This document shows, piece by piece, positions 4,301 to 12,610 of a DNA stretch of 64,000 nt. Where the stretch lies: contig OU612069.1 of NCBI GenBank assembly GCA_914767715.1, positions 7,690,001 to 7,754,000 on the forward strand, read 5' to 3'. The notes under the pieces are model-generated. The model was not told the origin of the DNA, did not search any database, and saw only the letters and a program-made list of their open reading frames with translations. The position numbers and the translations under genes were made by a program. This stretch comes from Membranipora membranacea. Its lineage: Eukaryota; Bryozoa; Gymnolaemata; Cheilostomatida; Membraniporidae. Position 1 is the first letter of the stretch. Each line of letters starts with the position of its first letter.

Positions 4301-4938
4301 AGCTGTGATAGCAAAAATCTCTATTTCAAGCCTGTGTGAAATGGGGCACTTTTCCTCTTACGAAACCACTTAAAGTTCTCTAGGACACCATGTACGTGAC
4401 CAATTTTATAATACTTGAATCCAATTTTATTCCTATTAGAAAAATGAATATACTACCCCAGTAAATCACATATTGTGAGTTCATAAAGCAAATGAAAAAT
4501 TAGGAAAATGAAAAAAATTGTGGAAAATAACATTTTAGTTCTTTCTTTTTTTGTTAATATATTAGCAAGGATCATAGTGGAACATAGTGGTCAGGTGGAG
4601 GCAATAAATCACTATGATCCACTATGATCCCAATTTTCATACTTTGCAGCAGTTTTACTGCAATTAGGTTCACAGGCTGTTTTATTGCATATGCCTTAAT
4701 GACTTTTCAGCCTGAGATCTATCAAACCATACCAAACATGGCCTAGTAGGTCTGACACTAATATCTTAATTCTTTATCGAATGATTGTTGTTAGGGATGG
4801 GGAGCAGAGTACCACAGACAGGACGTTACCAGTACGCCATGTTGGATAGAGATACATCTAAACGGACCTTTACAGTGGTTAGATAAAGTACTAACAGAGA
4901 TGGGACCATCAAACCTCGCCATAACAAGTGTATCATGA
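1189..4938 (+). CDS. R-Smad of the BMP (Smad1/5/8) class, C-terminal MH2 part, 5' end outside window
   Basis: Four exons (1189-1318, 2533-2664, 3909-4033, 4795-4938) join in frame into 177 codons that read as the MH2 domain of a receptor-regulated Smad, the nuclear effector of BMP receptors. Seen: the GFTDPSNN and [12 protein letters not shown] motifs, [14 protein letters not shown], the helix-1 motif NCNYHH, the PTTVCKI motif, [20 protein letters not shown], then the L3-loop motif [16 protein letters not shown]. From family knowledge, H and D in YHRQD and the NYHH motif are the BMP-class residues (TGF-beta-class Smads have YRRQT). The protein ends in T-S-V-S, so the last two phospho-acceptor serines are kept while the first S of the usual SSVS is T. 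The MH1 domain, linker and MH2 start lie upstream of the window. The stop codon lies inside the first monomer of a tandem array. Confidence 0.95.
2157..2371 (+). mobile_element. MITE family 1, best-preserved copy, with target-site duplication
   Basis: 215 bp with terminal inverted repeats of about 44 bp: left CACACTGATATGGAGAT, right end ..ATGATCAGTGTG. It is flanked on both sides by the 9-base direct repeat AGAACTAAC (2148-2156 and 2372-2380), taken as the target-site duplication. No coding capacity, so a non-autonomous DNA transposon. An 8-9 bp duplication is compatible with hAT-type or related integration (inference). Confidence 0.85.
2533..2664 (+). CDS. Smad exon b (MH2, [11 protein letters not shown] to TTVCKIPP)
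   Basis: Acceptor gttacag at 2526-2532, donor gtacgt at 2665. The frame joins exon a (Gly codon completed) and leaves with one base. Contains [11 protein letters not shown] and NCNYHH. An open frame runs on past the donor, but family conservation (KIPxGCSLKIF) requires splicing at 2664. Confidence 0.95.
2770..3498. mobile_element. Foldback element with a tRNA-like centre
   Basis: The terminal inverted repeats have consensus AAGGTRAGTTYAYACTAGG at 2770 and, inverted, at 3498. A longer inner pair (about 2925-3060 against 3345-3470) is nearly identical in reverse complement. The asymmetric centre (about 3190-3270) looks like a reversed tRNA head with a G-G-G-T-A-G-G-A-T-T-C-C type B box. Lies in the Smad intron between exons b and c. 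Confidence 0.75.
3909..4033 (+). CDS. Smad exon c (MH2, GCSLKIF to MSFVK)
   Basis: Acceptor ttcttcaacag ends at 3908, donor gtgtgt at 4034. Completes the Gly codon from exon b and ends in phase 0 after Lys. Encodes [11 protein letters not shown] and [18 protein letters not shown]. Confidence 0.95.
4430..4760 (+). mobile_element. MITE family 3, copy 1 (ends eroded)
   Basis: About 330 bp, matching the copy at 49255-49585. Shares an internal inverted pair AAGGATCATAGTGG / CACTATGATCCACTATGATC and GCAGCAGTTTTACTGCAA. Sits in the last Smad intron and ends about 35 bp before the terminal exon. Confidence 0.8.
4795..4938 (+). CDS. Smad terminal exon (L3 loop and phospho-tail)
   Basis: Acceptor tgttgttag ends at 4794. 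Forty-seven codons and TGA. Starts with [14 protein letters not shown] (L3 loop) and ends [12 protein letters not shown]. From about 4911 on, the coding sequence is also monomer 1 of the downstream satellite, so the last eight or nine codons and the stop are repeated many times 3' of the gene. Confidence 0.95.
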
Positions 4939-10900: not shown

Positions 10901-12610
10901 ATGCGAATTACTAACCTTGCCAAAACCAGTGTGTCATGATCTGATTGGGCCAGTCACTCACCTACTGCTACTATAACTTACTATGTAAGTTCTAGTAAGT
11001 CAGTTTGCCCCTCACTCACTTACTTACTACTACTAGGCCTATATGTTATAATGCGAATTACTAACCTCGCCATAACCATTGTATCATGATCTGATTGGGC
11101 CAGTCACTCACCTACTGCTACTATAAGCAGCTATGTAAGTTCTAGTAAGCCAGTTAGCCACTCACTTACTTACTACTACTATGCCTATACGTTAATATGT
11201 GAATTACTAACCTTGCCATAACCAGTGTATCATGATCTGATAGGGCCAGTCACTCACCTACTGCTACTATAAGTCACTATGTAAGTTCTAGTAAACTAGT
11301 TCGCCTCTCACTCACTTACTATTACTAGGCCTATATGTAACTATGTGAGCTACTAACCTTGCCATAACCATTGTATCATGATCTGATGGGGCCAGTCAGT
11401 CACTTACTGCTATTGTAAGTTACTATGTAAGTTCAAAATCTATCAGTGTCTCATGAAATTAGTTCGCCTCTCACTCACCTACTCACTACTACTAAGGCTG
11501 ATTAGTTATAATGCGAATTACCAACCTCGCCAAAACCAGTGTATCATGATATGATAGGACCAGTCACTCACCTACTGCTACTATCAGTTACTATGTAAGT
11601 TCTAGTGAGCCAGTTCGCCCCTCACTCACTTACTTACTAATACTAGGCCTATACGTTATAATATAGTTGCTAACCTCGTCATTACCATTGTATCATGATC
11701 TGATGTGGCCAGCCACTCACTTACTGCTACTTTAAGTTTCTATGTAAGTTCTAGTAAGCCAGTTCGCCTCTCACTCACTAACTTACTATTACTAGGCCTA
11801 TATGTAACTATATGAGCTACTAACCTCGCCATAACCATTATAGCATGATCTAATGGGGCCAGTCACTCACTTACTGCTACTTTAAGATACTATGTAAGTT
11901 CAAAATCTATCAGTGTCTCATGAAATTAGTTCGCCTCTCACTTACCTACTGCTACAATAGGTTGCTATGTAAGTTCTAGTAAACTAGTTCGCCTCTCACT
12001 CACTTACTTACTCCTACTAGGCCTATATGTTAATATGCGAGTTACTAACCTCGCCATAACCAGTGTATCATGATCTGATAGGGCCAGTCACTCACCTACT
12101 GCTCCTATAAGTTACTATGTAAGTTCAAAACCTATCAGTGTATCATGAAATTAGTAGGAGTAGGAGGTGGCTCAGTGGTTAGAGCGCCAATCCTTCAACA
12201 CGCAAGTGTTGAAGGTCGTGGGTTCGAATCCTACTGCAGTCTACTGACTACTGGGAGTTATTGGACCCCCAGGTGTGCTCCGACCTGCCTAAAAACTGAG
12301 AGCAAATTGGCGCTGTCATTGCAGCCTCGCCCTTAAGGCACACACTATTTCACCGCCACGATGTGGCGAGTGACGAACCCTTGCAAATTTAACCAACATG
12401 TAAGTTCTAGTAAGCCAGTTCGCCTCTCACTCACCTACTTACTACTACTAGGCTTATGTTTTAATGTGAATTACTAACCTTGCCATAAACAGTGTGTCAT
12501 GATCTGATATGGCCAGTCACTCACCTACTGCTACTATAAGTTACCATGTATGTTCAAAACCTATCAGTGTATCATGAAATTAGTTCCCTCTCACTGACTT
12601 ACTTACTAAC
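4911..12610 (+). repeat. Satellite-like array derived from the 3' end of the Smad gene
   Basis: 48 monomers by eye, anchored on ATCATGATMTGAT. The first six steps are exactly 150 bp (anchor positions 4933, 5083, 5233, 5383, 5533, 5683, 5833); later monomers are 142-167 bp. Each monomer starts with ACTAACCTCGCCATAACCAG (or a close variant) then TGTATCATGA, which in frame is [12 protein letters not shown], the Smad tail. Each also contains TATGTAAGTTCTAGT and usually a CTACTAGGCCTAT segment. Higher-order repeats are visible: about 1093 bp (GGCCAATATGTAACTATGTT at 6224, 7317, 8410) and about 611 bp (CCAAAACCAGTGTGTCATGA at about 10311 and 10922). Three monomers carry AATAAA (6352, 7445, 8538). 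A SINE interrupts the array at about 12150-12400. Confidence 0.95.
12150..12400 (+). mobile_element. tRNA-derived SINE inside the satellite array
   Basis: A tRNA-like head with A box TGGCTCAGTGGTTAGAGCG and B box GGTTCGAATCC is followed by a body with GGTGTGCTCCGACCTGCC and a GC-rich tail up to GAACCCTTGCAAATTTAACC. The same family occurs inverted at about 20216-20475. It interrupts a monomer, so it inserted after the array had formed there. Confidence 0.85.

What the first reader, a model, noticed from the sequence alone, without database searches (positions are those of the whole stretch)
4903..12610. A satellite array whose monomer contains the end of a Smad gene, including the phospho-tail codons and stop
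The last codons of the Smad gene ([12 protein letters not shown], from about 4911) are homologous, at the same place and in the same phase, to every monomer of a 7.7-kb array that starts at that point. The first six steps are exactly 150 bp. The tail is encoded as ACAAGTGTATCATGA in the gene and mostly ACCAGTGTATCATGA in the array: a synonymous difference. So either the array grew from the gene's 3' end, or the gene's end was overwritten by the array. In both cases the receptor-phosphorylated motif of a core signalling protein is physically part of a satellite and exposed to unequal exchange and conversion. I know of no described case like this.
Basis: partly seen in the sequence, partly recalled or inferred. 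Interest (0 to 1): 0.88.

Follow-up and report, generated by a model that had tools for sequence, protein, structure and literature searches.

The report
Repeat array grown from gene's end
Next to a core animal signalling gene lies a 7.7-kb stretch of DNA repeats in which every unit begins with a copy of the gene's last eight codons and stop signal; the repeats most likely grew out of the gene's own end and have no shown function, but they place a vital protein tail inside fast-changing repetitive DNA.

Summary
A BMP-type R-Smad gene ends at 4936-4938 (tail [12 protein letters not shown], stop), and a head-to-tail array of 48 monomers runs from 4912 to 12612. Monomer 1 is the gene's own last 27 coding bases plus 123 bp of 3' flank; all 47 later copies keep the tail homology and the stop. 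A public 480-aa protein, P0002, ends with the same 176 residues, so the gene end is independently supported.

Direction: the array most likely grew from the gene. Its tail is a Smad tail (ISSVS or ITSVS in 187 of 194 listed proteins), and the gene-attached copy is the closest of 46 to the array consensus, non-coding part included. The 47 later copies show no coding constraint; 22 of 47 have lost a serine expected to be receptor-phosphorylated.

New here: the monomer is itself an old dimer. The 167-bp class carries the tail twice, so tail duplication came first, then dimer amplification, then 1,093-bp higher-order repeats.

Exchange into the gene, transcription of the array and copies elsewhere in the genome are not shown. 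Passive in-situ amplification is the best reading.

The parts
1189..1318 (+). Smad MH2 exon (first one in the window; the gene starts before base 1)
   Evidence: splice borders ttag/gttagt, spliced reading frame; MH2 PF03166, E 2.3e-58 for the spliced peptide
2533..2664 (+). Smad MH2 exon
   Evidence: splice borders acag/gtacgt
3909..4033 (+). Smad MH2 exon
   Evidence: splice borders acag/gtgtgt
4795..4938 (+). Last Smad exon, ending ..[16 protein letters not shown] and TGA
   Evidence: splice border ttag; the 176-aa splice product is the exact end of P0002
4912..4938 (+). 27 coding bases ([12 protein letters not shown]) shared by the gene and the array
   Evidence: copy table; tail translations
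4912..5061 (+). Monomer 1: gene tail plus 123 bp of 3' flank
   Evidence: closest of 46 monomers to the array consensus, 4 differences, next 7
4912..12612 (+). Whole array, 48 monomers of mostly 143-168 bp; one of 225 bp, one of 429 bp with an insert, the last one partial
5947..9319 (+). Higher-order repeat: seven-monomer blocks of 1,093 bp; 5947-8226 matches the stretch 1,093 bp further on at 98.55%
6340..6352 (+). Example of the second tail-like stretch (CAGTGTCTCATGA) inside a 167-bp monomer; 15 monomers under 250 bp, and monomer 47, carry such a second half
   Evidence: positions; half A against half B, 0 of 5000 shuffles reach the score
12155..12395 (+). SINE-like insert with a tRNA-like head inside monomer 47 (borders by eye)
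   Evidence: Rfam tRNA match 12168-12234, 29.2 bits against a gathering score of 29; ARAGORN calls no tRNA; sequence

Best explanation
The array was born in place from the 3' end of the Smad gene. A segment holding the last codons, the stop and some 3' flank (roughly 75-90 bp) duplicated in tandem. The two halves diverged, and the dimer (167 bp, or about 150 bp after loss of the stretch with the second tail) was amplified head to tail. Unequal exchange and segmental duplication then built the 1,093-bp higher-order repeats. Monomer 1 stays fused to the gene and its 27 coding bases are kept by selection. The other 47 copies lie after the stop codon, are not translated, and drift as non-coding repeats. 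Shown: anatomy, homology, two-half structure, no coding constraint in later copies, gene copy closest to the consensus. Inferred: the order of the steps, selection on monomer 1, and the lack of a function of the array.
For: 27-bp tail in phase in all 48 monomers. The tail is a Smad tail: last five residues ISSVS in 182 and ITSVS in 5 (one of them P0002 itself) of 194 listed proteins. P0002 supports the gene end. Monomer 1 is closest to the array consensus (4 differences, next 7 among 46; non-coding part 3, next 7 among 32 distinct types; 6 to the consensus of the distal types, tied with m08, distal types starting at 8). Half A and half B consensus align tail on tail, 0 of 5000 shuffles in each of three scorings. 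Changes in later copies fall 6/5/5 over codon positions, 4 synonymous to 12 nonsynonymous. Higher-order repeats at 98.55%.
Against: No related species' DNA could be read, so the ancestral 3' flank is unknown. The residues N-L-A at the edge are unusual among Smads (so are P-S just outside it). Two supporting observations are weak: monomer 1 has no private change, but neither do 34 of the other 45 compared, and its tree branch is short (0.0076), but several others have length 0 and no starred fork holds it. Halves of single monomers gave mixed results: 5, 2 and 100 of 1000 shuffles for m14, m1 and m10.
Confidence: 0.8

Rival explanations
1. An older satellite invaded the locus and overwrote the gene's end, replacing the last codons by array sequence.
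For: The homology starts sharply at 4912 and N-L-A is unusual for a Smad. The gene copy differs from the array consensus at only 1 of 27 coding bases.
Against: The array would have had to carry a Smad tail and stop in phase beforehand. Monomer 1, an edge copy, is the most consensus-like of 46. No copy elsewhere in the window.
Confidence: 0.08
2. The array is a working part of the gene: a repeated 3' UTR, a set of 3'-end signals, or a source of antisense small RNAs against the gene's own end, as tandem repeats with gene fragments are in fly testis.
For: No AATAAA between the stop and 6352, so an mRNA using that signal would run through nine monomers. Tandem repeats related to genes make piRNAs in Drosophila (Su(Ste), AT-chX; PMC7874207, passages).
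Against: A variant signal AGTAAA lies in monomer 1 at 4993. Folds are unremarkable (z 1.00, 0.41, 0.99). No Rfam family in the repeats themselves. No sign of constraint beyond that expected from homogenisation. In the same paper AT-chX piRNAs, 76% similar to vasa, were found not to repress it.
Confidence: 0.12
3. The array comes from a mobile element that captured or carries a Smad tail.
For: Many satellites come from mobile elements (PMC12692304, section 4.1 read).
Against: No dispersed copy in the window; only a tRNA-like match, in the distal insert, and no ribozyme at E up to 1. No general repeat library was available, and the genome was not searchable.
Confidence: 0.04
4. Assembly artefact: copy number, or the junction itself, is wrong.
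For: Exact repeats up to 809 bp are where copy-number errors arise.
Against: Monomer 1 holds the gene's own tail, which P0002 supports independently. 32 of 46 aligned monomers are distinct, and a SINE-like insert marks the distal end. The copy number may still be wrong.
Confidence: 0.05

Closest known systems
Satellites from tandem repeats in the 3' untranslated regions of plant Ogre retrotransposons (Vondrak et al., PMC7004042; start of abstract and passages seen)
   Same: Short tandem repeats just after a coding region expand into satellite arrays
   Different: There the host is a mobile element spread over the genome; here it is one essential cellular gene, and the unit includes its last codons and stop
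Coding minisatellite of mouse Prdm9 (PMC3890296; passages seen)
   Same: Coding sequence inside a tandem array at the 3' end of a gene, turning over by copy-number change and conversion
   Different: Prdm9 repeats are translated and change the protein; here each unit ends in a stop and only the first is translated
Gene-related tandem repeats Su(Ste) and AT-chX of Drosophila (PMC7874207; passages seen)
   Same: Homogenised tandem repeats related to a protein-coding gene
   Different: Those repeats lie away from the gene and make piRNAs; here they are fused to the gene's end, in sense, with no small-RNA data
Partial gene duplication (Katju review, PMC3449122; passages seen)
   Same: Duplication of only part of a gene
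   Different: The listed cases gave new genes; here 27 coding bp were copied 47 times as untranslated repeat
Satellites with higher-order repeats, units grown by duplication and divergence (PMC5615363 passages; PMC12692304 section 4.1)
   Same: Dimer-derived monomer, higher-order repeats, homogenisation
   Different: Sources listed in that section are mobile elements, rRNA-gene spacers and shorter repeats; the coding end of a protein gene is not among them

Membership tests
BMP-type R-Smad (gene) | MH2 domain | tested here: met
   PF03166, 197.7 bits, cut-off 25; best solved relatives SMAD1 and Protein mothers against dpp
BMP-type R-Smad (gene) | MH1 domain | tested here: met
   Not in the window; precomputed PF03165 in P0002, the matching full-length protein
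BMP-type R-Smad (gene) | C-terminal S-x-S acceptor pair | tested here: met
   ..ITSVS-stop; that the last two serines are the phosphorylated ones is recalled, not from a call
Satellite DNA | Head-to-tail array of similar units | tested here: met
   48 monomers
Satellite DNA | Homogenisation and higher-order repeats | tested here: met
   1,093-bp blocks, 98.55%
Satellite DNA | High abundance at many loci | not testable with these tools
   The genome search unanswered 13 times; no other copy in the window
Coding minisatellite (Prdm9 type) | Repeats translated in the gene's frame | tested here: not met
   Every copy ends in a stop; only monomer 1 lies in the reading frame
Mobile-element-derived satellite | Similarity of the unit to a mobile element or ribozyme | tested here: inconclusive
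   Rfam shows none in the repeats; no general repeat library was available
piRNA-type regulatory gene-fragment repeat | Small RNAs from the array | not testable with these tools
   no RNA data

The most novel reading that the evidence does not exclude
The gene's phospho-tail codons are under live concerted evolution with the array: the array is a store of tail variants, 22 of 47 of which would delete a phosphorylated serine if converted into the gene, so that a core signalling switch is continually threatened by, and selected against, its own repeat array.
Probability: 0.2. Interest if true: 0.8.

Novelty: new variant of a known kind. Interest (0 to 1): 0.52.

Why it matters
If the in-situ origin is right, this is a tandem array seeded by the coding end of a conserved signalling gene, with the founder copy still in use. 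The locus has an internal control (one unit expected to be under selection, 47 without), so array turnover, conversion into a coding tail and selection against it could be measured in one place. It also shows how close to vital codons a fast-changing array can be tolerated.

Tried and rejected
Chance similarity: rejected (27 bp in phase, running on through a 150-bp unit, 48 units). Overwriting by an older array: disfavoured (see rivals). Special protection of the tail in array copies: not supported. The 27-bp window ranks 11 of 150 circular windows for conservation among 45 copies; mean conservation is 0.944 coding against 0.894 non-coding, but other non-coding blocks reach 0.96-0.99. Ribozyme or structured RNA: none found. 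Copies in viral and prokaryote contigs: 0 and 0 by exact pattern, uninformative for an animal sequence. Species: not identified. A quick tree of 59 Smads, chosen from the 194 fetched, puts P0002 beside unnamed P0003 (SH-aLRT 87) among mollusc, annelid, nemertean and brachiopod proteins, next to Schistosoma (88), which may be long-branch attraction; both P0002 and Schistosoma were flagged as long branches. That half B keeps more of the gene than half A: not claimed; the best local alignments started at the tail itself and 10, 3 and 20 of 1000 shuffles reached the score. Literature: ten answered searches showed no described case in the listings seen; three of them returned no paper at all, and the library holds open-licence papers only. 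In the first handing-in of this report some fields came out jumbled; the check after it also led me to mend the tail-to-tail distance (75 bp) and to mark two lines of evidence as weak.

Full report
What is there. The window (GC 0.379) opens inside an animal Smad gene. Four exons with AG and GT borders lie at 1189-1318, 2533-2664, 3909-4033 and 4795-4938 and splice to 176 residues plus stop. They form most of an MH2 domain (PF03166). The best solved relatives are SMAD1 (1khu, 5zok) and Protein mothers against dpp (3gmj); two of the three alignments shown reach the last residue. The tail is [13 protein letters not shown] 480-aa protein from the public collection, P0002 (source tag lgn, contig of 3040 bases, 4 member sequences), ends with exactly these 176 residues. 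The window's gene has three introns here (1214, 1244 and 761 bp, from the exon borders), and P0002 is one uninterrupted frame on a 3-kb contig, so it is most likely from a spliced transcript (inference). The gene end is thus supported independently of this assembly.

The array. From 4912 to 12612 there are 48 tandem monomers. The first six steps are 150 bp; later ones are 143, 145, 146, 149, 150, 167 or 168, with one of 225, one of 429 that holds an insert, and a partial last one. Monomer 1 is the gene's last 27 coding bases, stop included, plus 123 bp of flank. Upstream of base 4912 gene and array differ. Every later monomer keeps the 27-bp homology in phase. The Thr codon is ACC in 38 of 47 copies, ACA in 8 and AAC in 1. 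All 47 keep the stop; 18 of 47 end in ITSVS; 25 of 47 keep S-x-S, 22 of 47 have lost the first of these serines and 1 the last.

Higher order. Blocks of seven monomers (150+167+146+150+167+167+146 = 1,093 bp) follow one another twice, and a third block is 1,092 bp; the stretch 5947-8226 matches the stretch 1,093 bp further on at 98.55%. A segment of 809 bp is repeated exactly at lag 775. The array was recently enlarged or is being homogenised.

The monomer is an old dimer. The 167-bp class has a second tail-like stretch (CAGTGTCTCATGA and close forms) 75 bp after the first (6340 against 6265 in monomer 10). Aligning the consensus of half A with that of half B gave scores that no shuffle reached, 0 of 5000 in each of three scorings (24 against a shuffle maximum of 22, 36 against 32, 128 against 99); the alignments put tail on tail and CACTCACCTAC on CACTCACCTAC. 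Consensus B was made from the distinct forms of 15 monomers shorter than 250 bp; monomer 47, which holds the insert, was left out. Single monomers gave mixed results: 5, 2 and 100 of 1000 shuffles for m14, m1 and m10, and 51 of 1000 for m10 at a stricter scoring. Monomer 46, of 225 bp, is one and a half times 150. So a unit of roughly 75-90 bp that began with the Smad tail was probably duplicated first, and the 150-bp class lost the second tail.

Which came first. Two lines point to the gene. First, the array carries a Smad tail that is old in animals: in the 194 proteins fetched (the best 120 listed by each of two searches, which passed 2302 and 3573 proteins), the last five residues are ISSVS in 182, ITSVS in 5 (P0002 included), ISSMS in 3, VSSVS in 1 and something else in 3. 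Second, monomer 1 has the fewest differences from the array consensus (4; next 7; 46 monomers compared, m47 and m48 left out). This holds with duplicates removed (32 types) and in the non-coding part alone (3; next 7). To the consensus of the distal types (m09 onward) it has 6 non-coding differences, tied with m08, while the distal types themselves start at 8. Edge copies of arrays are usually the most diverged (general knowledge), so this is the reverse of an invaded edge. Two further observations are weak: monomer 1 has no private change, but the same is true of 34 of the other 45; and its tree branch is short (0.0076), but several monomers have length 0 and no well-supported fork holds it. 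Against the reading: no relative's DNA could be read, and N-L-A at the edge is unusual for a Smad, though P-S just outside it is too.

Selection. In the 47 later copies the 27 bases show 16 distinct changes from the gene, 6/5/5 over codon positions, 4 synonymous and 12 nonsynonymous, against 20 and 61 possible single changes. That is what no constraint predicts. The tail window is conserved but not exceptional (rank 11 of 150). Divergence from monomer 1 is 0.080 in the 27 bases and 0.108 in the rest (45 copies). Only monomer 1 is expected to be under selection.

How it works, most likely. Passive growth: tandem duplication at the gene's 3' end, divergence, dimer amplification, then unequal exchange. 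The array has no coding sequence upstream of N-L-A, so exchange with it cannot duplicate the gene body; only tracts covering the 27 bp could change the protein, and 22 of 47 donors would remove a serine that, by established knowledge of R-Smads (recalled), the receptor phosphorylates. Whether such tracts occur is not shown: all four non-consensus states of monomer 1 are shared with other copies, one of them only with m2 and m35, which fits ancestry as well as exchange. Whether the array is transcribed is unknown: the first AATAAA after the stop is at 6352, but a variant signal, AGTAAA, lies in monomer 1 at 4993. RNA folds of three stretches are unremarkable.

Known kinds. A 2025 review's section on satellite sources names mobile elements, rRNA-gene spacers and shorter repeats, not the coding end of a protein gene (PMC12692304, section 4.1 read). 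Tandem repeats in 3' UTRs of plant retrotransposons are the closest process (PMC7004042, passages). The Prdm9 coding minisatellite is translated, this is not (PMC3890296, passages). Ten answered literature searches showed no described case in the listings seen; several used narrow term sets and three returned nothing, so this is weak evidence of absence. I rate it a new variant of a known kind.

Limits. The genome could not be searched, so whether the array is single-locus is open. The species is unknown; the relatives suggest a spiralian animal (inference). There are no reads, population data or RNA data.

Noticed in passing
4912-12612: The array is rich in splice-signal-like words: GTAAGT 50 times and TACTAAC 46 times. 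The block ATGTAAGTTC is the most conserved ten bases of the monomer (0.985). TACTAAC stands just before the tail in most array copies but not in the gene. With this composition it may be chance.
   Followed up: partly
12155-12395: SINE-like insert with a tRNA-like head in monomer 47.
   Followed up: partly
159-368, 726-944, 2140-2359: Three related dispersed repeats upstream of and within the Smad introns, 60-81% alike.
   Followed up: no
2926-3086 and 3304-3464: Inverted repeat, arms of 161 nt, 92% complementary, 217 nt apart, in a Smad intron.
   Followed up: no
13059-13197: Degenerate CACTGGT-rich tandem repeats of other periods (20, 33, 46) a few hundred bases after the array.
   Followed up: no
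40414-40688: Seven copies of a 39-bp repeat with an open frame of 127 codons through it.
   Followed up: no
46533-47654 (-): Frames that look to me like a decayed retrotransposon reverse transcriptase (recalled resemblance); the one frame tested, 46806-47267, has no Pfam match.
   Followed up: partly
54950-62468 (+): Series of cysteine-rich exon-like frames; of the two tested, one has a weak DUF7107 match below the cut-off (21.4 against 24.6 bits) and one has none.
   Followed up: partly
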